Part shown: positions 6,001 to 58,694 of the stretch, one piece after another
How the letters are laid out: every line of letters begins with the position of its first letter
Position numbering within the stretch: position 1 is the stretch's first letter
Origin: an uncultured Prevotellaceae bacterium
GTDB taxonomy: Bacteria; Bacteroidota; Bacteroidia; Bacteroidales; Bacteroidaceae
Direction: 5' to 3'
Length of the DNA: 64,000 nt
NCBI GenBank assembly: GCA_946185485.1
Contig: CAMHJQ010000005.1
Coordinates: 62,001-126,000, forward strand
Made by a program: the position numbers and the translations under genes
Notes under the pieces: model-generated
The model's database searches: none
What the model was told of the DNA's origin: nothing
Seen by the model: only the letters and a program-made list of their open reading frames with translations

Positions 6001-9000
6001 GGACATTGACATCGCCGTTAAACAACTTGTCAACAAAGTCGTGCTTTGTCTGAAGCAGATAGAACAGGTAGATGTCAAGACTACCCTTGACGGCATAGTA
6101 ATACACGTTCACCTGATTATCCTGGTACAGGGTGGCATAGAAATTGCCCGTCCTGATACCACGTCCGTTACGCTGTACGATATCGGAGTCACGATAGGGG
6201 AACGTGATATGGTGCATGTCGGAGATTCGGGGAATGTTAAGACCTGTGCCAAGTTTTGCCGTACTGCCGATAAGGATTCTTATCTCACCACGGCTGGCAC
6301 GGTTGATGATGTCCTGACGCTTCGTGTCGGTGGTACCTTCGTGCATGAAGACAATATCACCCTCTGGGATGCCATGCTCTTTGACAAGGGTGTCCTTGAT
6401 ATGCTGATAGGCATTCCACTCGCCCGGCTTCGGGGTGGAGCGGTCGCAGAAAATCAACTGTACGCCTTGATGCTCTGATGTCTTGGCGTAAATCTCTGCA
6501 ACCTTGCTGATAACGGCTCCTAACTTCGTGTCGGGGCCTTCGTGGTATTTCTCAGAGTTGACAAGCACAGGACTCAGAACAACATTCTGAGCCAGATTGG
6601 TGACTGTCAACATAATGGACTTTTCCTGACCTTCGGTAAGATGATCACGGAATATTTCTTCGGGCTGTGGTGACTGTGCAAAGTTCACCAGACGCTTGAA
6701 ATAGTCCTTATGGTCTGCATTCGCTTCAATCTCCACAAGTTGGTGATTGCCCTTTGGTCGCTTAATGCCGATCATGTCAACCGTCTTATAGTCCATGAAG
6801 GAACCGATATAATCCCTTAACTCAGGGATGTTAAAAAACTCATTGAGCCGCGTCTGCTGCTTGAACTCGCCCGGAACAACCGTAGGCTCGTATGTCGTAT
6901 TCAGACGGCCATAGACGGCAGCCCAAGAGTCGAAAGAATAGATATTCTGCTCTCGCAGTGCCTTCGGAGTAAGGGCCTCGCAGATAAGATACAGTTCGCT
7001 TATGCTGTTGCTGATGGGCGTACCGCTGAAGAAACAGGCACCTAAATCCTTGCCCGTCCTGTTCTGGATGGAACGGATAGTCAGACCTACCAGGTTGGCA
7101 AGGTCGCTACCTTCGGGATTACCGATACCCTTTAGGCGGGTCTGCTTGGTAACAAAGGGCCTGTTCTTGGCAAAATGGGCTTCATCAAGCCAGAGCATGA
7201 TATCGCCCCACTTGCCGATATGTGGTATGTCATCGCTTGACTTACGCATCTTATCTTCAAAGGCTTCGAGTTTAGCCTCCAGATTCTCCTTGCGCTTTTC
7301 CAAACCGCTGAGTTGGCGGGAAGTGATAGTACCGCCATTGCGCCTGACAACATCAAGGAGATCATCAAGGGCTTCAATCTGTTCCATCATCATCTCACGG
7401 TACATCTCAGGATCCTGCGGAATCTTCTTGAACTGGTCGTAGGTCATGATGATGAAATCCCAGTCATTGTTCATCGCATTGCGGAAGAAATTCTCCCTAT
7501 TGGCAGGGGTGAAATCCTTCTGCCCTGCATAAAGGATGCGGGCATTGGGGAAAGCGGCCTGTGCCGTAGCGGCGATCTCAGGGATATTGGCCTTGATTCC
7601 AACGATGATAGGCTTGCTGCACATGCCTATCTGCTTCATTTTATAGGCAGAAAGGATAATGGCAAGGGTCTTACCGGTTCCAACCTCCCAATTCAGATAG
7701 CCACCGCCATTCTGCGTAAGTTGAGAAACGGCTGCAAGTTGGTCGGAATACAACTCAACGTCTTTCTGCTCATCCTTTGGCTTATTGCGGTTGACATATG
7801 TAGAAAGACTCTTGAGGTCAAGGCCGGGGAACGTCAGATAACTGCCGTCATACTTCGGCTTGACAAATCCCTTGAACTTGTAGTTATACATCGTAGCAAG
7901 GGACTCCTTCTCTTCTTGTGGAAGTCGAAGCAGATAGTTCTGAAATCCGTCACGGATGGCATCGATACGAGCCGATGCAAACTGCTTACGCTCAGTATCT
8001 GGCTTCCTGATAGGGTCGCCATTCGGCTTGTAACCAGAAACCTTTGTGATATTCGGAACGGTATTCTGGAGGGCATGTTGCAGCAACTGTAAGCCGTCAA
8101 TATCCTTGCCGTCCTCAGTGCTGACAATAAACTCCTTGTAGATACGTGCATTGCCGTAACGAGGTCCGTCAACGACATACGTATCTGCCTTGTTGGAAAA
8201 CTCTATGGTGATTTCGGGTGCATTGAAGAACTCACGGGCGAAATCCTCAAACAAGTGAATAGGAATCCAACGCACTCCGAAATTAAAATCAATATCATCA
8301 AATTTGACGGCTTCTGGAAGGGCTTTCCTCAAAGCGTCCAAAGAACGCTGAATCTCTGCCTCCTGCTCTTCGTCGTTGCCGTGCCACATCTCGATAGCAG
8401 CAATCTTCTCATAGAGGTTTCCAGAAAGGAAACGCTCATGGTACTCCCAACGCTCTTCTGCAGGATTGAAATAAACCTTGTCATGGAGTTGGGCCTTGAT
8501 TTCTTTCTCATCGATGCCGCAAACCTCGCTGATAAACTCGAAGTCAACACCGCCAAAGCGGTTGAGCGAGGCAAACAAAGCGTCCTCGACGGTCTCAATA
8601 CCTTCGTTATCATCGACAACGAAAGAAACAGGACGGTCGAAGATGTCTGCTTTCTCGATATTCTCACCATTGGAACGCTCCAAGGAGAGAACATCACGGC
8701 CAAGGGCATCCATATTGATAATGGACGCATTCTTACGGTCACGCAGATTACCGTATTTGGCAAAGAAGTTATCGTAGGCGATATTCAGGGCCTCACGCAG
8801 TTCAGGGTGTTCAAGACGCTCCGAAGCCTCCGTGTCATACAACACCTCATAACTGTCACGCACCTTGACATACTGGCGCAAAACCTGTGTCTTACGGTCA
8901 TCCAGCGTGCAAGGGGTGAATATTGGGTTGATATTAACGCCTGTAAGAACGCCCAACTGGTCATCATCAACGATATAGATACCGTTGCGCCAGTGGGGAA

Positions 9001-10381
9001 GCATCTTGCCTTGGAACTCTCGCGGCTCCATCCTGCGATGCTCTTCATCCTGCTCATCCCACATGGCGAAGAGGTCAAGTTGTACGGGGCCTGACTGCTG
9101 CACCTTCGGCTTCACCTCTGCCCGCTTGACCTCACCCGTGGTAGTCACTTGCTTGACAGCCTCAGAAAGATGCGAGTTGTAGAGGTCTATATCAAGGTTT
9201 TGGCGAAGGTCCGCTTCGAGGATAGTACTCAGACGCTCGGCGACGGCATCAGCGTCACCGGCAAAGGGGTACTCGTAGGACGCACTGCCATACATATTCT
9301 TGCCCTCTACAACCTCATCAGCAATGATATGGGCGTTACTTGCATAGCCTGTAAACTCCATATCCTTAATGAAAAGGCCGTTAACCCAAGCCTTTTCCTT
9401 GCCATCCTCTGAGGTAAAGCCAACTTCACTGCTGATAAACGTCTTGTCGAGACGGCTGAATTGCTCTGCCTCTTGTTTCCTGGCACCGACCTTCTGCAAG
9501 ATGATAAGGTCACTGCCTGCCTCCGTGCCTGCCTCTTCGGAAAACATACCGTCTGGCAGTCGCACGACGGAAACGACGTTGGCGACATTCGCCATCTCTG
9601 AGCGGAAGATGGCATTACTGGTGCTGTCCATCACACCTCTGGAGGTGATAAAAGCCACAAGGCCACCTTCACGGACAGCATCGAGATTCTTCAGGAAGAA
9701 ATAGTTGTGCAAGGACTTGGAGGCAGACCTGCGTACCGAGTTCTTGCTATTGGTGAAGGCGGGGTCAAAGACTTTGACATCGCCAAAGGGGATATTCGAC
9801 GCTGACACGTCATAGAGGCCCATAGCCTCCTGCGGGATAGTCTCAAAGCCTCCTACGACTATTCTGTCTTCGGGATGCAGAGCCTTCAATATCTTACCCG
9901 TAAGTATATCCTTCTCATAGGCGGTAACGCTCATGGCTTGGTTATCACGACGGAACACGTCAATATAGCGGCCAATGCCGGAAGAAGGATCAAGGAACGT
10001 GTTCACCACAACGCCAGAGCGGGCAAGAGCCTTCGACAAGGCAGAAACAACCTGATCGGGGGTATAGAAGGACGTGTTGACACTGCGCTTCACGCTGTTC
10101 TCCATTTCCTGGGCCTCAATCTCAGTCTTGGCATTGTCCCTGAGAACTTGGAAAAGTTCACGGGTCATGGAGAACAGTCCACGGTCACTGCGCGACCAGT
10201 TTTCAACGTCCTTATCATCTTTGATGGGATTCAGGATAAACTTCAGACCACCGAAGCCACTATACTTGCGGAGAATAACCTTCTCCTCTTCTGTTGCCAC
10301 GCGATTTTCGCGCTCTATGAGCAAAGCCACCTTAATGGCTTCGATGTTCTCTTGCAGTTTTTCTCTTTTGTTGTACGCCAT
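1..10381 (-). CDS. Giant polyvalent protein: DNA methylase, SNF2 helicase, PRTase-like, MutS-I and ART-like domains (partial)
   Basis: An open frame of 3,460 codons runs from an ATG at 10381 to the left edge, so the C-terminus is missing. Approximate residues from that ATG: an N6-adenine methyltransferase at 100-200 (YTPDQVV, FLDPSSGIG as the SAM motif, SNIPFG in the NPPY position); an SNF2-like helicase at 890-1450 (Walker A EVGTGKT, LDEAH, QRNGRGIR as motif VI); a phosphoribosyltransferase-like fold at 1925-2050 (VIDNVLDTGTTA resembles a PRPP loop); a MutS N-terminal domain at 2825-2930 (FRCGDFYETYEQDA); and an ADP-ribosyltransferase-like domain at 3300-3400 (YRAVP, GDWVT). This mix is known as a 'polyvalent protein' on conjugative elements and phages. 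A role in protecting or processing DNA entering a new host is inferred. The gene forms its own transcription unit with a promoter near 10430. Confidence 0.88.
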   Translation of the reverse strand, partial: MAYNKREKLQENIEAIKVALLIERENRVATEEEKVILRKYSGFGGLKFILNPIKDDKDVENWSRSDRGLFSMTRELFQVLRDNAKTEIEAQEMENSVKRSVNTSFYTPDQVVSALSKALARSGVVVNTFLDPSSGIGRYIDVFRRDNQAMSVTAYEKDILTGKILKALHPEDRIVVGGFETIPQEAMGLYDVSASNIPFGDVKVFDPAFTNSKNSVRRSASKSLHNYFFLKNLDAVREGGLVAFITSRGVMDSTSNAIFRSEMANVANVVSVVRLPDGMFSEEAGTEAGSDLIILQKVGARKQEAEQFSRLDKTFISSEVGFTSEDGKEKAWVNGLFIKDMEFTGYASNAHIIADEVVEGKNMYGSASYEYPFAGDADAVAERLSTILEADLRQNLDIDLYNSHLSEAVKQVTTTGEVKRAEVKPKVQQSGPVQLDLFAMWDEQDEEHRRMEPREFQGKMLPHWRNGIYIVDDDQLGVLTGVNINPIFTPCTLDDRKTQVLRQYVKVRDSYEVLYDTEASERLEHPELREALNIAYDNFFAKYGNLRDRKNASIINMDALGRDVLSLERSNGENIEKADIFDRPVSFVVDDNEGIETVEDALFASLNRFGGVDFEFISEVCGIDEKEIKAQLHDKVYFNPAEERWEYHERFLSGNLYEKIAAIEMWHGNDEEQEAEIQRSLDALRKALPEAVKFDDIDFNFGVRWIPIHLFEDFAREFFNAPEITIEFSNKADTYVVDGPRYGNARIYKEFIVSTEDGKDIDGLQLLQHALQNTVPNITKVSGYKPNGDPIRKPDTERKQFASARIDAIRDGFQNYLLRLPQEEKESLATMYNYKFKGFVKPKYDGSYLTFPGLDLKSLSTYVNRNKPKDEQKDVELYSDQLAAVSQLTQNGGGYLNWEVGTGKTLAIILSAYKMKQIGMCSKPIIVGIKANIPEIAATAQAAFPNARILYAGQKDFTPANRENFFRNAMNNDWDFIIMTYDQFKKIPQDPEMYREMMMEQIEALDDLLDVVRRNGGTITSRQLSGLEKRKENLEAKLEAFEDKMRKSSDDIPHIGKWGDIMLWLDEAHFAKNRPFVTKQTRLKGIGNPEGSDLANLVGLTIRSIQNRTGKDLGACFFSGTPISNSISELYLICEALTPKALREQNIYSFDSWAAVYGRLNTTYEPTVVPGEFKQQTRLNEFFNIPELRDYIGSFMDYKTVDMIGIKRPKGNHQLVEIEANADHKDYFKRLVNFAQSPQPEEIFRDHLTEGQEKSIMLTVTNLAQNVVLSPVLVNSEKYHEGPDTKLGAVISKVAEIYAKTSEHQGVQLIFCDRSTPKPGEWNAYQHIKDTLVKEHGIPEGDIVFMHEGTTDTKRQDIINRASRGEIRILIGSTAKLGTGLNIPRISDMHHITFPYRDSDIVQRNGRGIRTGNFYATLYQDNQVNVYYYAVKGSLDIYLFYLLQTKHDFVDKLFNGDVNVRRFKEGDVDEEEGFSYGTFMSQLYDYPELIEREKLNKDVIRLDTERRMFYKQRGVQEFRYNEAKNDLDKCLTDKAHIIEDIASIYGITRQGFNSDDDYMKAVREYSSWLNDNPVNFFAPLTIIPGEHYMGNYTSQDIINNFGGKQSAFNPDHVVLSGRGLAKYLQEISRREVDDEDIIGVHQVDGANKFALRMSSCYSFNEKTGVRRFTGNRVGLVGEASGISYYYNGGSIPSRNTEEVIQWIAKSEARIGEAYESHVLRSLSLEKEISELEPLILKEWEKTDELTQKRQQLGELDARISKLLGNIEKDLVSSPDELPYTIENDSYGYRPTKITFKYSDYPYISREELRSICEPLQGDIDAYPQQDIYKGSFKHPYGAEESFKKISERNKSNKDNISWLVSAAKKYDDEVCIAAERRLREKGLDRLGRPLSETMGNRHLVTYALGHYSEKEVRALAHGVKDDNRVAIDVAAKALSDVIIKQGLSLNDIVLVPMPGHDGYARTTKHLADAISNLTGVDVVDALNGKRHDSLYDWKKEHPGEPLPSPYYVESENHPIPEGKVPFVIDNVLDTGTTAWAILDAIRQQPILLTVGATGNEGLDGHEISVTYVDNGLNLIKESTPEGVGLTGKSQEELDGLLRRSRQDGYGGGAYEARRDLERMGIDWYTGHPTYEVQHIIDVWDKVYSGLEKIVSPIVEKGSVEELLTDEERKHVSDRDINRLRNCLMALTNTPKSDWSFQSQRVLLIVYGMVREQVDTALDRPVTVTLPTFDAEQWQIKEGETDHLGKLRYVEDETIESYMRRNDLDTDDEDYVGYFAQKYTAEEWEGLQQSLTGITKENAEKRCREVLAVTGDTHETAMLLTLTQSVRQDVAQAYFKGLTAKSQVNDTEGLTEENIIGESETEGEKVAAAQDSETIEEPREDWEEHAVEVLMQRYPEHNEMDIREWVHDFWGNLGTDEENIAEYELHLKNEVKGEEKVSLDKPFASQKEAKDFLNEIGYKGKVSRLLNTDDGTSFIKYFSNGVVTPNIYIGQTTPMDVYRQFHLYGNIMEVTIPEDVSQILDKEQEDALLTRKGVWEADRERVRIELIEQGIAFFDVIDCERGHRIVFTEHKNENGNYTDWSDIADYDALTDAMTLEHIRQQSAKFAVSVSESFDGEAQTAKIAMLPVDQRYFDIIKSSLHIENTSKDDDIRKMANAVSKAVSEYSSLPDFEQRESLHAQLRVQLKRILRSGGVSDTEVTKGIVGSIMNVATGMASEVQKDSETMVTKSEYENIISELSEKHHIDKQAITSFVDEVRRIYRIDTETLDGLVSEINGWKERKAAKEDIVVSLEPVFKSFADGKEIGGLELYVKQDAVVSQIEESPMMKQFRDLKAKHPDAMLLFRCGDFYETYEQDAVEASRLLDITLKYRPGMAGLGKDNPEGALATFPHHALDTYLPKLIRAGKRVAICDQLEDPRLTQKLVKRGISELVEPGFGTRLQLFEHRGLQADHTIIEEGGRWHVDYPAGYGLPNHFVRELAKVYDGEPYMLDGRMRVRFLTEESANAFIGNVKHLNEKYTNPLFNGLIQKMKNAGIDVVTDIEEGERVLRKAEGVKRHIFDDERVQRFAAKHNLSTMLVGIYAAAMNAEDLRGAQSTYYAIRRAVREQHTTMNVSDFSPLFAEVREELYSTFGSVDALREKWIAEAEEAREVMDEAAARIRTAAEQENERLQPLRDMLDKELDELYMMTLPHEALELHTVEEKMAAVNSLSSDEKQMLEDIVRVMRERRGYEVKSDYQGVGAWIAPGNPGYETAEARRAAFEEDSPDVNLVDIALGVSPQPDDYFTNLRAYVHDDATIESKRSLKAAIDALYGNEDVTVKVYRAVPKDIKEDMFRNGDWVTPSLLYAENHGKNRFGFGQYRIIEQEVPAKFLWWDGNDANEWGYDDSQGYAYKNVRYNRKSNDLITFDDKGVVIPPSQRFDEKVSDLRYMHVPESPVFISNAVISLGKIRQEKATPMQWLGMLE

Positions 10382-11068: not shown

Positions 11069-11359
11069 ATGGCAGAACTCGAAGGAATTTTGAAACAGAT
11101 TTTCACCGACGGCTATACATCTAAGGTGGTTGGCAACTGGAAAGCCTATTTAGGTTTCCGTGGTGAAGAGGCAATATCCATACAGGTGTGGGGTAATCAT
11201 TCAATTGACTTTGGTATTAAGGTATTCCCGAACCTTCCATCAGCGCCTGTCGATACCATCAATGAAATTCACAACCTGATTGTGAATAGTGGTCTGGTTG
11301 TTTCCTATAGCAATTATATCTCTCTTAACGAGCGAATACATTATACTCTTAAACAATAA
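11069..11359 (+). CDS. Hypothetical protein, first gene of accessory operon
   Basis: 96 residues; family not recognised. No signal peptide or membrane segment is visible, and the central segment EEAISIQVWGNHSIDFGIKV looks like a beta-rich cytosolic fold. The ATG lies 15 bases after leader repeat copy 1. The next gene starts 8 bases after the stop, so it belongs to an operon of eight small genes. Similar placement behind the other leader copies suggests a common control regime. Confidence 0.7.
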   Translation: MAELEGILKQIFTDGYTSKVVGNWKAYLGFRGEEAISIQVWGNHSIDFGIKVFPNLPSAPVDTINEIHNLIVNSGLVVSYSNYISLNERIHYTLKQ

Positions 11360-19728: not shown

Positions 19729-20577
19729 TTATTCTTCTTTCAGAAGTAACGTGGAAAAACTGTCGGCTGCAAGGATGTCCTCGTAGTCGATGGTCATGGA
19801 GATGGTACGCCCGCTGACCTGTATCTCGCTGAGTTCGATGGTCAAAACCTTGTCATTGGGGAAAGTCATCTTCTTCAGTACGACAACGTTCCTGTAGCCA
19901 TGCTTGAAGTTCTTGCTCTTGTCAAGAACAAGCACGGGCTGGATGTCAAGGGTCTGGGCGTTGGTGGCTTTCGACAGTTTCTTGTCGTCGAGTTTGAACC
20001 TCAGTTCGTCTATGTCGAAACGGAGGTTGGTCTTGTTCTCCACGCTGAAGTCGATGAAGAAATACTCGCCGACCGTATAGACGTTGTTCAGACGCATCAC
20101 CATATGGTGCCGCTTGGTCTTCACGTTACGGTACTTGGCAGGGGAGTTCCATATCCTGCGTGCATAGTGTACGATTTCCTCTGTACTCATGCTAACGGCA
20201 GGGTTATGGAAGGCAGTGCGCTCGTTGAGTTGCACTTCCTTGTCACTCACGGCTTCCTCCATACGGGAGGTATAGATAAGGGCATACTGCGAACGGAACC
20301 GCTCGGTGACAACGGTAACGATGGCGACAATCTCACCATCCTCATGTTCGCCGTCCTTCGGCTTCACTCTGATGACATTCTCAATAGGCTTGTCGCCGAC
20401 AACCTTGTCGGTGGAGATATCCACCAGTCGGATAGGCTCGGAGGCCGTGATAACGGTTGTGACGTTCTCGTTGACGGTCAACTGCTCCATTTCCTGAAAA
20501 GTCTGCTGGGCAGACATGACCGTAGGGAAAGCCGCAAACAGAAGTGCGGCAATACGGAAAATCTTCATTGTTCTCAT
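19729..20577 (-). CDS. traN: Conjugative transfer protein TraN (VirB9-like)
   Basis: 282 residues with a signal peptide (cleaved after about residue 23, VMSAQQ). The body is beta-rich, with the DUF4138-type region (YRNVKTKRHHMVMRLNNVY, then FFIDFSVENKTNLRFDIDEL) typical of Bacteroidetes TraN. It corresponds to the VirB9 outer-membrane core of the secretion channel. Lies between traM and traO, as in Bacteroides conjugative transposons. Confidence 0.88.
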   Translation of the reverse strand: MRTMKIFRIAALLFAAFPTVMSAQQTFQEMEQLTVNENVTTVITASEPIRLVDISTDKVVGDKPIENVIRVKPKDGEHEDGEIVAIVTVVTERFRSQYALIYTSRMEEAVSDKEVQLNERTAFHNPAVSMSTEEIVHYARRIWNSPAKYRNVKTKRHHMVMRLNNVYTVGEYFFIDFSVENKTNLRFDIDELRFKLDDKKLSKATNAQTLDIQPVLVLDKSKNFKHGYRNVVVLKKMTFPNDKVLTIELSEIQVSGRTISMTIDYEDILAADSFSTLLLKEE

Positions 20578-33895: not shown

Positions 33896-35032
33896 ATGAT
33901 AATCACAGTATCAAGCAAGCAACTCAGTGAGACGTTGAACATTCTGGCTAAGAACGTAGAGTCAAAGAACACGCTCCCCATCCTCGGTAACTTCATCTTT
34001 ATCGTCAAGGAGGATGTGCTTTCCATCAAGGCTGGAAACGTAGATACCATCATGACTGGCAAGGTCACTATGGATAGTGTAGAGGGTGAGGGTACGTTTG
34101 CCGTATCTGTCAAGGACTTACTGGATGCAGTGAAGAACATCCCGGAGCAGCCCATGACTATCGAGACGGACGACGCTAACAACCTCATGAAAGTCAAGCA
34201 TCAGAGTGGCTTCTTCTCTCTTCCAACCGCATCGGCAGACGAGTTTCCTGTTATGGTGGCAGTCAGCGAAACCAGTTGCACCACTATCACCATCCAAGAG
34301 GGCCTGTTGCAGGAGAATATCGCCCGCACGGTATTCGCAACGGCACAGGATGAACTTCGACCTGTTATGAATGGTGTGTACTTCGACCTCACCAAGGATC
34401 ATCTGGCTATCGTGGCATCTGACGGACATCAGCTTGTGCGCAACTGCCTGACAACCATCAAGGCAGAAGAGGGTAAGGAGGCATCCTTAATCTTGCCTAA
34501 GAAAGTCTCTTTCCTGCTGAAGAACTTCCTCCGTGGCACTCTGGAGAGCGACGTGACGCTGACATTCGACGAGCGCAGGGTGAATATCACCACCGACAAC
34601 TTCACCATCGAGAGCCGTCTGATTGAGGGTCGTTATCCCAACTATAACTCTGTGATTCCACAGAACAACCCCAACATCGTTGCGGTGGATAGAGCCTCTT
34701 TCGTGGCAGCACTCAAACGTGTGGCTCCATTCTCCAACGAGTCAAGCAACCTCGCACGGCTTCATGTTGAACAGAACCTCCTGCAGGTTGACACTGAGGA
34801 TTTCGACTTCTCGAAGACCGCATCTGAGCGTCTGGCCGCAGACTATAGCGGTACTCCAATGAATATCGGCTTTAACTGCGTGAGACTGACAGAGGTACTG
34901 GCCAATATCAAGGCACAGGAGATTAGCATCCATCTGGCTGACCCAAGCCGCGCCGCTCTGGTGAAGCCAACCGAGCAGCCCGACGGACAGGAGATAACAA
35001 TGCTTATCATGCCGATGCTCATTAACGATTAG
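33896..35032 (+). CDS. dnaN: DNA polymerase III beta subunit (sliding clamp)
   Basis: 378 residues, the normal length for a bacterial beta clamp with three similar domains. Family signatures include NTLPILGNFIF, VASDGHQLVR (domain 2) and IEGRYPNYNSVIP. The clamp tethers DNA polymerase to the template. An element-borne copy suggests autonomous or transfer-linked replication, or capture of host polymerases. The final residues (MLIMPMLIND) resemble the usual VIMPMR end. Confidence 0.95.
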   Translation: MIITVSSKQLSETLNILAKNVESKNTLPILGNFIFIVKEDVLSIKAGNVDTIMTGKVTMDSVEGEGTFAVSVKDLLDAVKNIPEQPMTIETDDANNLMKVKHQSGFFSLPTASADEFPVMVAVSETSCTTITIQEGLLQENIARTVFATAQDELRPVMNGVYFDLTKDHLAIVASDGHQLVRNCLTTIKAEEGKEASLILPKKVSFLLKNFLRGTLESDVTLTFDERRVNITTDNFTIESRLIEGRYPNYNSVIPQNNPNIVAVDRASFVAALKRVAPFSNESSNLARLHVEQNLLQVDTEDFDFSKTASERLAADYSGTPMNIGFNCVRLTEVLANIKAQEISIHLADPSRAALVKPTEQPDGQEITMLIMPMLIND

Positions 35033-44195: not shown

Positions 44196-46400
44196 TCAGA
44201 AATAAGTTTTCATTATCGCTTGTATTCGCTGCTTCAAATACGTCTGCCTTTCCACGAAAAGGCGACGGTTCTTAACGTAGAGATTGGTGACCGCAGCATA
44301 AAAGGCCTGCTTGTCGCCAATGATGATGCAACGCTCCTTGGCACGGGTAATAGCCGTATAGACAAGGTTACGCTGCAACATGATATAGGACGTGTTGAGA
44401 ATGGGGATGACAACAGTGTTGTACTCTGACCCCTGGGACTTGTGAATGGTCGTCGCATACGACAGACACAGTTCATCCAAGTCGTCTTCCTCATATTTCA
44501 CGGATGATTCGCCATCGGGATAGTCAACGAGCATAAAGCCCATTTCTTCATCCACCAAGCGGATAATCCCGATATCGCCATTGAACACGCCTTTGTCATA
44601 GTCGTTTTTCATCTGCATCACCCTGTCACCTTCTCGGAAGAATGTATCACCATACTGTAGGGACTTACCCGTTGGGTTAAGCCTCTCCTGTAGCACCTTG
44701 TTCAACGTAGAACAAGAGGTGATACCATTTGATCTTTTGGGACAGAGTACCTGTATTTCATCAACACTAAGCCTATATGCTTTGGGAAGGCGCTCAGAGA
44801 CAAGGGTAAGGATTTCATCGGGAACACTCTCTTCGTTTTTGTTCTCGATAAAGAAAAAATCCTTGCTTCCCTTGTTGACAAGATAAGGCATCCTGCCTTC
44901 CTTGACATCCTTCGCAACCCAAGGAATACGGCTGTCTGCCTGCTGTCGGTGGATAGTGTCAAGCCTGACAACGGGGATATCGCCGCTGTCTATGAGATCT
45001 TTCAGAACATTACCGGCTCCAACGCTGGGTAACTGGTCCACATCACCGACAATAACCAGACGCTTTCGTGGTGTCAGAGCCTTCAAAAGACTTTGGAACA
45101 GCAGCAAATCAACCATGGAAAACTCATCGATGACAATCACATCCTCTTCGAGGCTGTTCGTCTCGTTGTACTTGAAGCCGTTCACCTCCCAACTGAAGTT
45201 AAGCAGTCGGTGAATCGTCATGGCATCATAGCCAGTGCTTTCCTTTGCCCGCTTGGCAGCACGTCCCGTAGGAGCGCAGACGGCAATGCTATACTGGCAA
45301 AGCCTGAGTGCAAGGAGTATACCCTCCAGAACGGTAGTCTTGCCAGTACCAGGCCCACCCGTGAGAATCATCACTCGGTGGTGTAATGCCTGATGGATGG
45401 CTATTTTCTGGATTTCGTCGTACTGCATACGCTTTTCGATCTGGATGTTGTTGATGGCATACGCGGCTATTGAATCCATGTTCCCAACATCGCCATATTC
45501 TGGCTCTTTGAGCATGGCAACGATTTTCCTCGCACAGTAGAACTCAGCGTCGTAATACTCGGAAAGGTAAACCATCCCTGTATCGTTGATAATCTTACCG
45601 CGTTTGATATTTGCCATCACTGCAACCTCCACCTTCTCGCTTCCGGCATTCAGGATTTCCTCTGCTGATTTCAGCAGTTGGTCGAAAAGGATGTAGCAGT
45701 CGCCTTGGTGTACCAGTTCGGACATCACAAACAGTACGCCTGCATTCAGCCTACGTGGATCATCATCGACAAACCCCATCGCCTTCGCTATCCTGTCGGC
45801 AATCTTGAAACTGATGCCGTCTATTGACTCTATCAGACAATACGGGTTTTCTCTCACGGTCTGCACGGCTGTATAGCCATAGACCTTGATGATTTTCTTC
45901 ACATAGACGTAACTGATGCCGAAACTGGAGAGGAAGACCATCACATCACGCTCCAAGGATTGCTGCTTCATGAACTTCGAGGCTCGTTCTGCCCTATCCT
46001 TGCCAAAACGGGGAATCTCAGTAAGTCTGAGGGGGTAATTCTCGATAATCTCAAAGGTCTCGTGACCGAATCGGGCCACGATGGCATGGGCGAATTTCTT
46101 TCCTATTCCCCTGATCTTGCCACTGGCAAGGTATTTCTCTATGCCTAACAGTGTCTCAGGACGGACTTCCATCCATGACACAGCGGCAAACTGCTGGCCG
46201 TACTTATCGTGCTGTTTCCAGCAGCCTTCCACATCAAGAAGCACTCCTTCAGCAACAGCGAAGGAATTGCCTGTAACCACCATCTCTTTACCGTTATCCT
46301 CACGGATAGCAGCAAAGACGCTATAGCCGTTGTCAGGCGCAAAATAGATGGTGCGCTTGACTGTGCAGCGGATGTGGATATATTTCTCTTCTGTCATCAT
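44196..46400 (-). CDS. RecD-like (RecD2-type) DNA helicase
   Basis: 734 residues. An N-terminal beta domain (VKRTIYFAPDNGYSVFAA), a helix-hairpin-helix region, then superfamily 1B helicase motifs: Walker A LTGGPGTGKTT near 345, IVIDEFSMVD near 422, GDVDQLPSVGAG, and C-terminal YATTIHKSQGSEYN and AITRAKERC. RecD2 enzymes unwind 5'-3' outside RecBCD. A role in element replication or repair is inferred from the neighbouring replication genes. Confidence 0.92.
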   Translation of the reverse strand: MMTEEKYIHIRCTVKRTIYFAPDNGYSVFAAIREDNGKEMVVTGNSFAVAEGVLLDVEGCWKQHDKYGQQFAAVSWMEVRPETLLGIEKYLASGKIRGIGKKFAHAIVARFGHETFEIIENYPLRLTEIPRFGKDRAERASKFMKQQSLERDVMVFLSSFGISYVYVKKIIKVYGYTAVQTVRENPYCLIESIDGISFKIADRIAKAMGFVDDDPRRLNAGVLFVMSELVHQGDCYILFDQLLKSAEEILNAGSEKVEVAVMANIKRGKIINDTGMVYLSEYYDAEFYCARKIVAMLKEPEYGDVGNMDSIAAYAINNIQIEKRMQYDEIQKIAIHQALHHRVMILTGGPGTGKTTVLEGILLALRLCQYSIAVCAPTGRAAKRAKESTGYDAMTIHRLLNFSWEVNGFKYNETNSLEEDVIVIDEFSMVDLLLFQSLLKALTPRKRLVIVGDVDQLPSVGAGNVLKDLIDSGDIPVVRLDTIHRQQADSRIPWVAKDVKEGRMPYLVNKGSKDFFFIENKNEESVPDEILTLVSERLPKAYRLSVDEIQVLCPKRSNGITSCSTLNKVLQERLNPTGKSLQYGDTFFREGDRVMQMKNDYDKGVFNGDIGIIRLVDEEMGFMLVDYPDGESSVKYEEDDLDELCLSYATTIHKSQGSEYNTVVIPILNTSYIMLQRNLVYTAITRAKERCIIIGDKQAFYAAVTNLYVKNRRLFVERQTYLKQRIQAIMKTYF

Positions 46401-52987: not shown

Positions 52988-53926
52988 TTATGATGTTTGT
53001 CGCCACTGCTGCTCTTTCTGGAGCCGCCATTTCCGAATGTCACCGGCAATGATGGTATCGACATCCATCCCAAACGTAAGCCCAAGGCTTTCAAGGTACT
53101 CTTCAAACAAAGTAAGATTTCTCTTGCCGAAGTTGCGCATTTTCAGCATGTCACTCTTATTCATTCTGACGGCATCGCCAAGGGTTTCAACATCACATGC
53201 TTTCAGACAGTTAAACGTCCTGACATTAATATCAAGGTCACGAATATTCGTGGAAAGCAGTTCTTTCAGATGCGCCAACTCTGCTGCATCTACATCGTTA
53301 GGCTCAGTAATTGGAACCTCTGAGTCAACCTTGCTCTGGAATGTTGCCAGAATACGATCAAGAGTCTCGACATAAAGACGAAGGGTTTTGTTCTCTGCTT
53401 TAAGTTCCTTACACTCCTTATGGAGTGACGGATATTTCTGTATCTCCTTGATTTTCGCTATTGTCCGTACACAGAGTGTAGAGATACCCGAACAAGTCAT
53501 GGAAAAATCTGCGGCTACATCAAGGATGGATTTGCCAGCAAATAATTCTTCGAGAATCATCTTCTCACGCCAAGAGAGTAGTTCTTCTCCGGCAACATTA
53601 TAGAGTGCCTGGAGAGTGGCGGTTATGACTCTGGGAGAGTTCCCTTCGTCAAACAGCGCATCAGACTTGCGCATATCTTTTATTTTCACCTGAAGGGATG
53701 CCTCTAACTGCGTCAGTTCTGCCTTCATCGCGTCTATACGCTTTTCCATAAAGGCAAGGTCTGACAGCTTATCAAAATACACCTCTATGCTATGGCGGTC
53801 AACCATTACTTGCTTGCCTTCGACATAATGGCCTTTTATAAGTCCCTTATCAATCCAGTTGGAAACGGATTGTGGTGTCATGTCAAGCAGTAGTGCTGCC
53901 TCTTGTCTTGATATCATTCTGCTCAT
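52988..53926 (-). CDS. Three-part transcription-factor-like protein: MerR-type HTH, sigma-4-like HTH, RNAP alpha CTD
   Basis: 312 residues. N-terminal ISRQEAALLLDMTPQSVSNW is a MerR/excisionase-type HTH. The middle (about 112-165) has LLSWREKMILEELFAGKS followed by DVAADFSMT, like sigma-70 region 4. A coiled-coil linker follows, then near 225-295 IRDLDINVRTFNCLKAC and MLKMRNFGKRNLTLFEEYL, an RNA polymerase alpha C-terminal domain. Both sigma-4 and alpha-CTD touch promoter DNA, so this may redirect host RNA polymerase to element promoters (inference). Confidence 0.78.
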   Translation of the reverse strand: MSRMISRQEAALLLDMTPQSVSNWIDKGLIKGHYVEGKQVMVDRHSIEVYFDKLSDLAFMEKRIDAMKAELTQLEASLQVKIKDMRKSDALFDEGNSPRVITATLQALYNVAGEELLSWREKMILEELFAGKSILDVAADFSMTCSGISTLCVRTIAKIKEIQKYPSLHKECKELKAENKTLRLYVETLDRILATFQSKVDSEVPITEPNDVDAAELAHLKELLSTNIRDLDINVRTFNCLKACDVETLGDAVRMNKSDMLKMRNFGKRNLTLFEEYLESLGLTFGMDVDTIIAGDIRKWRLQKEQQWRQTS

Positions 53927-56075: not shown

Positions 56076-56230
56076 ACTTCTACATTTTCATTTAACTTTT
56101 CTGGATGGAAGGAATAGGCGGTTAGTTTGCCGTTGCTGCCACGCCACGCTATATACTTCGGCGTAAGGCTGACTACATCGGCATTGTCGGGAATCCGACT
56201 GACTATTTCCTTAAATTCCTTTCCAACCAT
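56072..56230 (-). CDS. 52-residue hypothetical protein
   Basis: A short ORF whose stop overlaps the next ATG. It lies 26 bases downstream of RNA motif copy A. Soluble, beta-like (YIAWRGSNGKLTAYSF). Not recognised. Confidence 0.5.
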   Translation of the reverse strand: MVGKEFKEIVSRIPDNADVVSLTPKYIAWRGSNGKLTAYSFHPEKLNENVEV

Positions 56231-56256
56231 ATCTTAATAATTTCTTTATTTTTTTA

Positions 56257-56330
56257 CTTCGATGTCCTTACAGGAGGTATTTCACAAGTGGCTGATTAGC
56301 CCTCGCGTTAAGGCGGTACAGCCCGCCCGA
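56257..56330 (-). ncRNA. Structured RNA motif, copy A
   Basis: Read on the minus strand: stem GGCGG/CCGCC, stem CGAGGGCT/AGCCACTTG, then a short CCT/AGG hairpin and GACATCGAAG. Same order and spacing as copies B-D, with paired substitutions. Lies upstream of the 52-residue gene. Confidence 0.6.
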
Positions 56331-56390
56331 AAGTTTCTTTATGTCACTCTTTTCATATTTTTATATTATTATATTTTAATGTTTCTATTG

Positions 56391-56462
56391 TATTCCCACC
56401 GGGAATCGAACCCGGATCTACGGCTTAGGAGGCCGTCGTTCTATCCATTGAACTATAAGAAC
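56391..56462 (-). tRNA. tRNA-Arg (CCU)
   Basis: A cloverleaf can be drawn: D stem GTTC/GAAC, anticodon stem ACGGC/GCCGT with loop CTCCTAA (anticodon CCT), T stem CCGGG/CCCGG with loop TTCGATT. The acceptor stem has several G-U pairs, and CCA is not encoded. It reads AGG codons. The gene is on the element, not next to a visible integration site. Confidence 0.85.
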
Positions 56463-56488
56463 GCTTCACCACTTACACTGTTTGACAG

Positions 56489-56655
56489 CTGTATGTACCT
56501 TACATATTCTATGCTCTTACACCCCCTTGCTGCAGGGATTCATACAGGGCATTACTGTATGTACCTTGCATATTCTATGCTCGTACACCGTTTTCTAGTG
56601 CAAAGTTAGCATGAATACAACTGTATGTACCTTGCATATTCTATGCTCGTACACC
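56489..56655. repeat. Three 35-bp direct repeats with 31-nt spacers (CRISPR-like or iteron-like)
   Basis: Units begin at 56489, 56555 and 56621, an exact 66-base period. Each unit contains the dyad GCATATTCTATGC flanked by GTAC on both sides. Units 2 and 3 are identical; unit 1 differs at two positions. The two 31-base spacers are unrelated. Spacer 2 contains TAACTTTGCA on the minus strand, a -7-like box, so a promoter role for the tRNA gene is possible. No cas1/cas2 genes are in the window. Confidence 0.7.
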
Positions 56656-56700
56656 AGAGTATCGATAAAGCCAGGAATGGTCTCGGCTGCATATACTAAA

Positions 56701-56772
56701 GCATATCCCTTACGGGAAGGTACTTCACGAGTGACTTACCAGTCCTCGCGATAAGGCGGTACAGCCCGCCCT
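56701..56772 (-). ncRNA. Structured RNA motif, copy B
   Basis: On the minus strand: stem GGCGG/CCGCC, stem CGAGGACT/AGTCACTCG, then hairpin CCTT/AAGG. The GACT/AGTC pair replaces GGCT/AGCC of copy A, a two-sided change. Lies between the 74-residue gene and the repeat array. Confidence 0.6.
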
Positions 56773-56805
56773 TGATTATTCTCTACATATCATATCTCTT
56801 TTACA

Positions 56806-57030
56806 TTACCAATATTTTGATTTATCCCTATCGTACATATGGCGTTCCTGCTGGAAACTCCAGATGACAAGAGCAATTATCGCCACAATAACAGCGACCA
56901 ATACAGACGGCATAACGACCTTACATGGGGCAAACACCAAAAACGCACCAAATAAACCACTCACCACAATGGTCTTAATAAGAAACATTGTGTCTGGGCA
57001 ATTTTGAAATAACTCTTTTAACTTGTTCAT
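56806..57030 (-). CDS. Small membrane protein
   Basis: 74 residues with two hydrophobic helices (TIVVSGLFGAFLVFAPCKVV and LVAVIVAIIALVIWSF). Not recognised. Preceded by a 300-base gap that holds three short repeats and RNA motif copy C. Confidence 0.55.
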   Translation of the reverse strand: MNKLKELFQNCPDTMFLIKTIVVSGLFGAFLVFAPCKVVMPSVLVAVIVAIIALVIWSFQQERHMYDRDKSKYW

Positions 57031-57134
57031 AACTTTTGTTTTTTTTATCTTTAATATTTTTTTTCACTATCAATTTTGAAATTTTTTCTTTAAAGGTGTA
57101 AAACCTCAAACAAATTTTGTTACGGTCATCGAAT

Positions 57135-57213
57135 GTTGTATGTCACTTAAAGACATTGTGCTCGAAGGGTTGTATGTCACCTCTCTTAGAGATTGCAGAC
57201 AGTTGCATGTCAG
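57135..57213. repeat. Three 12-bp repeats about 34 bp apart
   Basis: GTTGTATGTCAC at 57135 and 57169 and GTTGCATGTCAG at 57202. The spacing is near three helical turns, as in protein-binding iterons. They lie between RNA motif copy C and the gene at 57030. The TGTATGT core also occurs in the 35-bp repeats. Confidence 0.5.
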
Positions 57214-57268
57214 TCTCCCTATTTCTTACTCTCGTAATGTGTAAATTCTCCGAGGGTAATAGGCTTGT

Positions 57269-57317
57269 GACTTCATGAGTGGCTTACGCCCTCACGATAG
57301 GGCCGTACAACCGGCCT
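57269..57317 (-). ncRNA. Structured RNA motif, copy C (10 nt after the TnpB/Cas12-like gene)
   Basis: On the minus strand: stem GGCCG/CGGCC, stem TGAGGGC/GCCACTCA. The T-A pair replaces C-G of the other copies on both sides. It begins about 10 bases after the stop codon at 57328, the place where omega/guide RNA scaffolds sit in TnpB loci. The third hairpin of A, B and D is not obvious here. Confidence 0.65.
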
Positions 57318-57327
57318 GATATGACGA

Positions 57328-58560
57328 TTAATCGTCATTTCCAGTATCTTCTTCTTCGTCACTCTTGCCATTCTCGATAACCTTGATGCCCACCATGTCG
57401 GCCTTGTACTTGATTAGGTTTTTGAGACCATAGTAGGACCAGTTGCGAAGTACGAAGGGCTTGCCCTTCTGATTGTCATTCTTCGCCTGCTCTTCTCTCT
57501 GGCTCTGATTGACAAGGACGATGGTGGCGCATTTATTCTGGATGGCTTTGTCAACAAGCATCCGCGAATAGGTATGGAGTTTGGTCTTGACGTAGTTCTT
57601 TTCCTGCTCAGCAAAACGCTCTAAGGCTTGCAACTTACGTTTGCGCCCTTTGCCGCCTACAGAATAGCGACTGTTCACCTGGCAGCGTTTCATGGCTGCT
57701 TGGATCTGCAATCTGCGATATTTAAATTCTTCGGCGGTGCCGATGGAGGCCCACTTGACACCACTGTCATAGACATTCTTTGCTTGCACCTCATACGTGT
57801 ACTGAATGGGACAGTCAACGCTCAGGTAGCAGAACATCTTCTTATCAGCCTTCAACTCTATATCCTTCTTGGGAATATCCACACAAAGGAACAGAAACAG
57901 CTTTTGCTTTTTCTTGCCTGTCTCACGATTGACTGTTTTTTCAAAGGCAATCGAAGAAGAACACATCTTATACTCGCCTGAGATACAGCGATCAATAACG
58001 GCCTCGTTGTTGCTGCGGTCACGGCCAAGCATACAGGCGAATGGAATGCCGAACAGGGTGAAGTAAAACCGACCATCATCTGCTTTATGAATGTTCGACA
58101 GAGCCTTGGCAGAGAATGGCATGGGAATGTTATTCTTGTAACTGCGCAAGGTCGCTTCACCCTTATTAATATCCATGACTGTTTCTTTGAAGGTCTTGGC
58201 AACAGCCTGGTTAAGGCATGAATAGATATCGGCAGGAACCTTACCTTTCAAAAGGGAGGCAATAAGTCGATATGTGGTGTTCTGTTCGCTCATGCCTTTC
58301 TCCTTTTTCAGGGTGTCAGATACGTTGTACTTAACTTTGCTTGCCCCTGTTTTCTCGTCTGTCACCATGAAACGCTCTTGAACGTCCTCTTGGAGATACA
58401 TGAAGTCTCGGACATTCTGCTGGACGAACTTGTGGCTGACAATCAGGTTGGCTGCTCGTCGCACGGCATCACGCCACTCATAGAGGGTGTGCTGAAAGTT
58501 CTTTTTCAGTTCCTTATCCTCTTCGTGGACATAGATCTCAATTTTTCTTGTAATAACCAT
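57328..58560 (-). CDS. TnpB/Cas12-like protein with defective RuvC centre
   Basis: 410 residues from the ATG at 58560; a GTG at 58653 would run through RNA motif D and is less likely. The N-terminal part resembles a wedge/recognition region (SLLKGKVPADIY, then SYKNNIPMPFS and GRDRSNNEAVIDR). A RuvC-like half follows: SVDCPIQY (Asp249, motif I candidate), the basic helix region KGRKRKLQALERFAEQEKNY, then ATIVLVNQ (346-353) where the motif II Glu is expected but absent, and NWSYYGLKNLIKYKA. The chain ends at 410 without a motif III Asp or zinc finger. Predicted RNA-guided binder without cleavage, like TldR or Cas12k. The family call rests on pattern, not alignment. Confidence 0.6.
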   Translation of the reverse strand: MVITRKIEIYVHEEDKELKKNFQHTLYEWRDAVRRAANLIVSHKFVQQNVRDFMYLQEDVQERFMVTDEKTGASKVKYNVSDTLKKEKGMSEQNTTYRLIASLLKGKVPADIYSCLNQAVAKTFKETVMDINKGEATLRSYKNNIPMPFSAKALSNIHKADDGRFYFTLFGIPFACMLGRDRSNNEAVIDRCISGEYKMCSSSIAFEKTVNRETGKKKQKLFLFLCVDIPKKDIELKADKKMFCYLSVDCPIQYTYEVQAKNVYDSGVKWASIGTAEEFKYRRLQIQAAMKRCQVNSRYSVGGKGRKRKLQALERFAEQEKNYVKTKLHTYSRMLVDKAIQNKCATIVLVNQSQREEQAKNDNQKGKPFVLRNWSYYGLKNLIKYKADMVGIKVIENGKSDEEEDTGNDD

Positions 58561-58621
58561 AGTTCTTACTTTTATATTAACATAATTTACTTCTTGAATA
58601 TTTGCTGTAATCACCCTACAT

Positions 58622-58694
58622 CTTCGATGTCCCCTTTCGGAAAGGCATTCCACGAGTGGCTTCGCCCTCGCGTCAAGGCCGTACAGCCGGCCCG
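58622..58694 (-). ncRNA. Structured RNA motif, copy D (upstream of the TnpB/Cas12-like gene)
   Basis: On the minus strand: stem GGCCG/CGGCC, stem CGAGGGC/GCCACTCG, hairpin CCTTTCCGAAAGG and GACATCGAAG. It ends about 60 bases before the ATG at 58560, so it is in the 5' leader of that gene or is a separate RNA. Confidence 0.65.

What the first reader, a model, noticed from the sequence alone, without database searches (positions are those of the whole stretch)
56257..58694. TnpB/Cas12-like protein, predicted nuclease-dead, with a family of structured RNAs
Seen: a 410-residue protein with RuvC-like patterns, no Glu at motif II (ATIVLVNQ) and no motif III or zinc finger. An RNA-like motif starts about 10 nt after its stop, another lies ~60 nt before its start, and two more are within 1.1 kb. 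Known: nuclease-dead TnpB relatives (TldRs) and Cas12k use guide RNAs to bind DNA without cutting, and TnpB guide scaffolds sit at the 3' end of the gene. Inferred: the motif copies share a scaffold and carry different 3' sequences that could be guides, giving an element-borne RNA-guided repressor. Alternative: the motif is an unrelated cis-regulatory leader and the protein a diverged relative.
Basis: partly seen in the sequence, partly recalled or inferred. Interest (0 to 1): 0.93.

Follow-up and report, generated by a model that had tools for sequence, protein, structure and literature searches.

The report
Cut-dead CRISPR aimed at rival elements
A bacterial conjugative element carries a CRISPR protein whose DNA-cutting residues are gone, together with four copies of its predicted guide-RNA scaffold and a tiny CRISPR array; one guide matches 29 of 30 letters at the predicted start signal of another mobile element's replication genes, so the system likely silences rivals by binding their DNA instead of cutting it.

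Summary
Gene 57328-58560(-) encodes a 410-aa Cas12f; its best solved relative is a nuclease-dead dCas12f. The catalytic Asp and Glu are replaced and the zinc-finger end is missing. The four RNA motifs are one covarying scaffold. Of 399 family genomes, 8 have the scaffold, and all 8 are among the 9 with a Cas12f gene. No Cas1 was found in the own assembly, no Sigma70_r2 on its contig. Spacer 1 matches 29/30 bases over the predicted -7 box of an integrative element's DUF3853-primase operon in a same-genus genome. A phage spacer matches a related phage's exonuclease gene at 27/30; both targets follow TTTTG. Best reading: a nuclease-dead, adaptation-less type V-F CRISPR that likely silences competing mobile elements; unlike dCas12f-sigmaE it has no linked sigma factor found, and it mixes fused-looking and array guides. 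Binding and silencing are untested. Most guides have no target found. New variant of a known kind.

The parts
57328..58560 (-). Nuclease-dead Cas12f gene, 410 aa (stop included)
   Evidence: phmmer to PDB 9n9c 'Nuclease-deactivated Cas12f' E 6.4e-67; PADLOC Cas12u3/Cas12f about 1e-51; Asp to Tyr, Glu to Val, no C-terminal zinc finger
58622..58693 (-). Scaffold M4 with fused handle, about 60 nt upstream of the gene; single-guide-like
   Evidence: covariance model hit 58635-58693, 63.2 bits; fold; fused guide role inferred
58593..58621 (-). Predicted guide of M4
   Evidence: position after the handle, inferred; no target found in own genome or viral contigs
57202..57317 (-). Scaffold M3, 10 nt after the stop codon, with a first short repeat at its end
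   Evidence: covariance model hit 57258-57317, 60.7 bits; z -4.27
57111..57201 (-). Degenerate mini-array of M3: guides 57183-57201, 57149-57168, 57111-57134 between short repeats 57169-57182 and 57135-57148
   Evidence: sequence; reading as an array is inferred; no convincing target
56656..56771 (-). Scaffold M2 with tracr-like anti-repeat
   Evidence: covariance model hit 56710-56771, 69.2 bits; predicted duplex with the array repeat -22.2 kcal/mol
56488..56655 (-). CRISPR array: repeats 56620-56655, 56554-56589, 56488-56523; spacer 1 56590-56619; spacer 2 56524-56553
   Evidence: direct repeats, array extraction, coordinates checked
56463..56487 (-). Possible terminal 25-nt guide between the last repeat and the tRNA
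   Evidence: position only; inferred
56390..56462 (-). tRNA-Arg(CCT) directly after the array; whether it helps processing is unknown
56257..56328 (-). Scaffold M1 with fused handle; the 3' sequence 56228-56256 is A/T-rich and may not be a working guide
   Evidence: covariance model hit 56267-56328, 66.8 bits; fold

Best explanation
This is a naturally nuclease-dead type V-F CRISPR system on a conjugative element: a Cas12f without catalytic residues, four predicted guide scaffolds and a mini-array, which likely binds the DNA of competing mobile elements at guide matches and would block their transcription. Shown: the dead Cas12f; a covarying scaffold that in 399 genomes occurs only where a Cas12f gene occurs; a CRISPR array; no Cas1 found in the assembly and no Sigma70_r2 on the contig; one spacer matching 29 of 30 bases across the predicted -7 box of an integrative element's DUF3853-DUF3987-primase operon in a same-genus genome. 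Predicted: pairing of the M2 anti-repeat with the repeat (energy model). Inferred: M2 and the array transcript give split guides, M1 and M4 act as fused guides, M3 as a degenerate array. Inferred: the complex recognises a 5' motif near TTTTG, opens the target and, unable to cut, keeps RNA polymerase off the promoter, so that the resident element silences a competitor's replication genes. Likelihood: RNA-guided DNA binding about 0.93; silencing of rival elements as the main role about 0.6.
For: Dead Cas12f by sequence and fold. Kept by selection: dN/dS 0.020-0.062 in six of six pairs among four related phage contigs. Covarying scaffold, tied to Cas12f genes. Arrays in 15 of 19 dead-branch loci. 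Cognate anti-repeat and repeat stronger than same-locus non-cognate in 19 of 22 comparisons. Spacer 1 target at 29/30 on another mobile element's predicted promoter; a phage spacer against a related phage's exonuclease gene at 27/30; both after TTTTG. Near-identical phages differ at the scaffold-proximal spacer. Silencing by dead type V effectors is shown for V-C and V-M (PMC12669027 section 9).
Against: Only one of the window's guides has a good target, and it lies in another species; the target was in 1 of 352 other genomes. Spacer 2 looks like a conserved chromosomal gene, with no G before it. The phage target is inside a gene, not at a promoter. No RNA, binding or expression data. The cognate repeat ranked first in only 6 of 26 units when set against all 30 repeats. 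A dCas12f relative of known function activates transcription (recalled), and a Pedobacter relative has a sigma-like gene 3 nt upstream.
Confidence: 0.6

Rival explanations
1. RNA-guided activator: the dCas12f recruits a sigma factor or RNA polymerase and switches genes on, like the known dCas12f-sigmaE system, here with an unlinked host sigma factor or the element's own HTH plus RNA-polymerase-alpha-CTD-like protein (52988-53926).
For: Nearest solved relative is dCas12f of that system (function recalled). Pedobacter relative L001 has a sigma-like gene directly upstream (Sigma70_r4 E 2.7e-8). The element encodes an alpha-CTD protein (E 3.6e-15). The host assembly has 18 Sigma70_r2 matches on other contigs.
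Against: No Sigma70_r2 on the window contig or in 14 of 14 virus records, and no relative of the L001 sigma in the held mobile-element loci (best E 2.3). Spacer 1 covers the predicted -7 box itself, a position that would block, and one phage target is inside a gene. Limit: PF04542 scored the L001 sigma only 0.0053, so a divergent sigma could be missed.
Confidence: 0.2
2. Regulator of the host or of the element itself (TldR-like): the guides tune chromosomal or element genes and do not fight rivals.
For: Spacer 2 resembles a conserved 365-aa chromosomal gene: 17 of 20 bases in the own genome with all three mismatches at third codon positions, and 22 of 25 in G487. TldRs are phage-borne RNA-guided repressors of host genes (PMC13418256, passages).
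Against: No own-genome match to spacer 1, spacer 2 or the M4 guide with 2 or fewer mismatches over 20 nt. Spacers differ between near-identical phages, unlike a fixed regulator. The host-gene match lacks a G at its 5' side.
Confidence: 0.12
3. Decoy: the dead Cas12f or its scaffolds sequester guides of a host's active Cas12f (anti-CRISPR).
For: Active Cas12f relatives with related scaffolds and repeats exist in the same family (L043-L046, L026). A phage Cas9 with an inactivated RuvC domain is proposed to act by sequestering crRNAs (PMC11656645, passages).
Against: Units carry diverse 30-nt spacers, one with a near-perfect target. The own genome has no other Cas12f-like match at E <= 1e-20.
Confidence: 0.05

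Closest known systems
dCas12f-sigmaE RNA-guided transcription system (PDB 9n9c, 9n9m; function recalled, paper not held)
   Same: Nearest solved protein by sequence and fold; same catalytic losses and early C-terminal end
   Different: No linked sigma factor found here; several scaffold units, one with a CRISPR array; one target over a predicted -7 box. Whether the known systems carry arrays was not checked
Type V-M CRISPR-Cas12m
   Same: Dead type V effector with CRISPR arrays on mobile elements, shown to block transcription and proposed for inter-plasmid competition (PMC12669027 section 9; PMC11656645 passages)
Type V-F CRISPR-Cas12f (active; Al3Cas12f, CnCas12f1, AsCas12f1)
   Same: Same family; five active relatives in the same bacterial family have related scaffolds and arrays
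   Different: Here the RuvC residues and zinc finger are lost
TldR (TnpB-like nuclease-dead repressors)
   Same: Dead RNA-guided protein on a mobile element; scaffold right after the gene; predicted repression (PMC13418256 passages)
   Different: TnpB-derived (recalled); here Cas12f with a CRISPR array and several scaffold units
LaTranC (transposon-CRISPR intermediate; PDB 9jfo)
   Same: Fused and split guides side by side would be alike (recalled for TranC; inferred here)

Membership tests
Type V-F CRISPR-Cas12f | Cas12f sequence and fold | tested here: met
Type V-F CRISPR-Cas12f | CRISPR array beside the effector gene | tested here: met
   three 36-nt repeats, 30-nt spacers at 56488-56655
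Type V-F CRISPR-Cas12f | tracrRNA with anti-repeat | tested here: inconclusive
   anti-repeat pairing predicted only: -22.2 kcal/mol, rank 4 of 30 repeats for the window; no RNA data
Type V-F CRISPR-Cas12f | Active RuvC triad and zinc finger | tested here: not met
   hence called a nuclease-dead variant
Type V-F CRISPR-Cas12f | Adaptation module (cas1) in the locus | tested here: not met
   no PF01867 match in the own assembly (89.66% complete) or in 14 of 14 virus records, some of them fragments
dCas12f-sigmaE | Nuclease-dead Cas12f | tested here: met
dCas12f-sigmaE | Genetically linked sigma factor | tested here: not met
   none on the window contig by PF04542, no relative of the Pedobacter sigma, none among scanned neighbours; the Pedobacter relative has one
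dCas12f-sigmaE | Minimal 5'-G target-adjacent motif (recalled) | tested here: inconclusive
   two protospacers, both after TTTTG
TldR | TnpB-derived dead protein with a single fused guide RNA | tested here: not met
Type V-M Cas12m | Cas12m-lineage effector | tested here: inconclusive

The most novel reading that the evidence does not exclude
Bacteroidota conjugative elements and phages have turned Cas12f into a programmable gene-silencing weapon against each other: a cut-dead effector served in one locus both by fused single-guide RNAs and by independent tracrRNA-CRISPR cassettes, re-armed with new spacers without a Cas1 of their own, and aimed at promoters and at replication or recombination genes of competitors. 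It would be a living bridge between one-guide TnpB-type regulators and array-based CRISPR, and a branch of dCas12f that works without a linked sigma factor.
Probability: 0.5. Interest if true: 0.88.

Novelty: new variant of a known kind. Interest (0 to 1): 0.77.

Why it matters
If true, nuclease-dead Cas12f is an RNA-guided silencer by which mobile elements compete. Relatives are common in metagenomes: 970 homologs at E <= 0.001, dead and active together, of which the best 120 were listed, on contigs of up to 342,614 bases. It would add a type V-F branch to the dead type V effectors that block transcription; the 2025 classification names V-C and V-M as shown, and V-O, V-P and possibly Cas12b3 as predicted (PMC12669027, section 9). 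It offers a natural 410-aa multiplex silencing effector. It also makes two questions testable: how dead Cas12f split into sigma-linked and array-linked branches, and how guides move between fused and split forms.

Tried and rejected
Cis-regulatory leader unrelated to the gene: rejected. Rfam at gathering score finds only the tRNA in the window, and the scaffold occurs only in genomes with a Cas12f gene (8 of 399).

Decayed pseudogene: rejected by dN/dS 0.020-0.062 in relatives and a shared C-terminal end in 24 aligned rows. The window's own gene had no DNA relative to measure.

Targets not found. In the window, 16-nt matches with 2-3 mismatches occur (for example spacer 1 at 20182, two mismatches), but at 20 nt with 3 or fewer only the A/T-rich M1 sequence matches another place (48483). 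Exact 18-20-mers of spacers 1 and 2, the M4 guide, one M3 guide, one L009 spacer and one L014/L016 spacer in viral contigs: nothing, or the contigs that carry them. Array stretch against plasmids and phages: no match with E below 1. Third M3 guide in 249 same-genus genomes: own copy and one 3-mismatch hit, about what chance gives. Spacer 1 in own genome: two 3-mismatch hits at other promoters, taken as promoter consensus. The first M3 guide was sought only in the window and held loci. The M4 guide was not sought in other genomes.

Spacer 2 as a host-gene spacer: left open.

Small conserved protein (61-138 aa) beside dead Cas12f in 12 of 18 dead loci, several near-duplicates: no homolog found near the window gene, so not part of the claim.

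An early note says the motif I Asp became an invariant Leu; that was a misreading by one column, corrected. One search gives the phage target as 3 mismatches over 29 because my extraction cut the spacer one base short; one search gives 27 of 30.

Papers: seven searches gave no paper in the held library on a natural dCas12f system. The dCas12f-sigmaE work is recalled; a DOI given from memory was not held. Whether it already covers this branch cannot be told here.
Full report

Nuclease death. In 24 aligned homologs (57-93% identity to the window protein) the RuvC-I Asp column holds Tyr (18), Phe (5) or Ile (1), the RuvC-II Glu column holds Val, Leu, Met, Thr or Ala, and the proteins end before RuvC-III and the zinc finger. 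Five active Cas12f relatives from the same bacterial family keep DLG, Glu, the zinc finger and the final ADYN/ADFN. Against them, 19 of 19 dead-branch rows lack both the Asp and the Glu; 17 of these have a complete end and none has the tail. L017 is too divergent to judge and L029 is a fragment. Dead rows lie on one side of a branch with support 100/100 (40 rows against 5 active); the Pedobacter row is a long branch whose place is unsure. Among four related phage contigs dN/dS is 0.020-0.062 in six of six pairs; L014/L016 give 0.24 from very few changes; other pairs are saturated. The dead protein is maintained by selection, as measured in relatives.

The RNA. Thirty copies align and support two helices of 14 pairs: 96.0% of cells paired against 72.8% in shuffles, 99 double-changed cells against 31, covariation score 0.655 against 0.199, and at most 0.105 for any slid version. 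A covariance model gives 53 matches in 35 held sources, in every case in a locus with a Cas12f gene, including weaker ones (44-52 bits) beside the five active relatives; the 30 model sequences match by construction. Two Cas12f-like loci gave none: L001, where the contig ends inside the gene, and L017. In 399 genomes of the window's family, 9 have the gene (E <= 1e-20) and 8 the RNA (E <= 1e-4); the 8 are a subset of the 9, and the ninth is a gene fragment at a contig end. The own genome has exactly the four copies in the window.

Guide anatomy. M2 is followed by a CRISPR array of three 36-nt repeats with two 30-nt spacers, and the stretch between scaffold and array is predicted to pair with the repeat (-22.2 kcal/mol). 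M1 and M4 carry a fused handle GGACATCGAAG followed by different sequence, like single guides. M3 carries short TGACATRCAAC-type repeats about 20 nt apart (reading inferred). In dead-branch relatives, one search found 34-38-nt repeats with about 30-nt spacers in 15 of 19 loci, often two or three units per locus; L018 shows shorter-period repeats, and L004, L041 and L001 none. L002, L006 and L041 also show single-unit forms after the gene (by eye). In 22 same-locus comparisons the cognate repeat gave the stronger duplex in 19, with 1 tie and 2 losses; against all 30 repeats the cognate ranked first in only 6 of 26 units, and fourth for the window. Near-identical phages L014 and L016 share distal spacers but differ at the scaffold-proximal one, the pattern of array turnover.

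Targets. Spacer 1 of the window matches G541:C43:133127-133156 at 29 of 30 bases, the only match at 3 or fewer mismatches over 25 nt in 353 genomes besides its own array; by hand estimate such a one-mismatch match is expected about 1e-4 times there. The protospacer contains TAACTTTG, which fits the recalled Bacteroidales -7 consensus, and ends 94 nt before a DUF3853-DUF3987 operon followed by a primase gene and preceded by a tyrosine integrase: another integrative element. Phage contig L009 carries a spacer matching L011 at 27 of 30 bases inside a RecE-like exonuclease gene. Both protospacers follow TTTTG; with two cases this is only a hint. Other window guides gave no convincing target. Spacer 2 resembles a conserved chromosomal gene (17 of 20 bases in the own genome, all three mismatches at third codon positions; 22 of 25 in G487), but without G at its 5' side.

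What is missing. No Cas1 in the own assembly (89.66% complete) or in 14 of 14 virus records; G084 has one on another contig. No Sigma70_r2 on the window's contig or in those 14 records, some of them fragments. One control shows the limit of that test: Pedobacter relative L001 has a sigma-like gene 3 nt upstream (Sigma70_r4 E 2.7e-8, r2 only 0.0053), which would have missed; tblastn with this sigma found nothing comparable in the window or held loci (next best E 2.3). As sampled here, the sigma-linked and the array-linked dead Cas12f are different loci types.

Setting. The window is a conjugative element: Transposon_TraM E 1e-38, P-loop_TraG E 7.8e-120. Its 132,593-base contig shows no end overlap, so plasmid or integrated state is open. 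The host is named by no call; that it belongs to the Bacteroidota is inferred from its relatives. Some phage-like contigs carry recombination, SSB or terminase-like genes (partly by eye).

Reading. The parts fit a nuclease-dead CRISPR silencer used between mobile elements, in working principle closest to Cas12m (PMC12669027 section 9; PMC11656645 passages). Transcription, binding and silencing are inferred. The main rival is RNA-guided activation through an unlinked sigma factor or the element's alpha-CTD protein.

Noticed in passing
window 56390-56462; L010 4633-4705; L012 8751-8823: A tRNA-Arg(CCT) starts directly after the last guide of the window array; two phage contigs of the dead branch also carry a tRNA-Arg(CCT) near a scaffold unit. 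Possibly tRNA processing sets the guide's 3' end.
   Followed up: partly
L001:7173-7985 and 7989-9059: Pedobacter contig with a sigma-like gene 3 nt upstream of a dead Cas12f, matching the known sigma-linked type.
   Followed up: partly
L016:9325-9552 and relatives in 12 of 18 dead loci: Conserved small charged protein (61-138 aa) beside dead Cas12f; one member weakly matches phrog_2044, labelled RNA polymerase beta subunit (E 3.2e-5).
   Followed up: partly
window 52988-53926: Protein with HTH_17 and an RNA polymerase alpha C-terminal domain; a possible transcription partner of the element.
   Followed up: no
L014 and L016 arrays near 11230 and 9654-9772: Near-identical phages share distal spacers but differ at the scaffold-proximal one: array turnover with no Cas1 in either record.
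   Followed up: partly
L026, L043, L044, L045, L046: Five active-looking Cas12f genes with related scaffolds and CRISPR arrays in the same bacterial family, the likely source of the dead branch.
   Followed up: partly
window around 33175 and 38579 (minus strand): Two nearly identical stretches of over 100 nt, seen; possibly repeated mobile-element ends.
   Followed up: no
window 33896-35032 and 44196-46400: The element encodes a DNA polymerase III beta clamp and a RecD2-like helicase.
   Followed up: no
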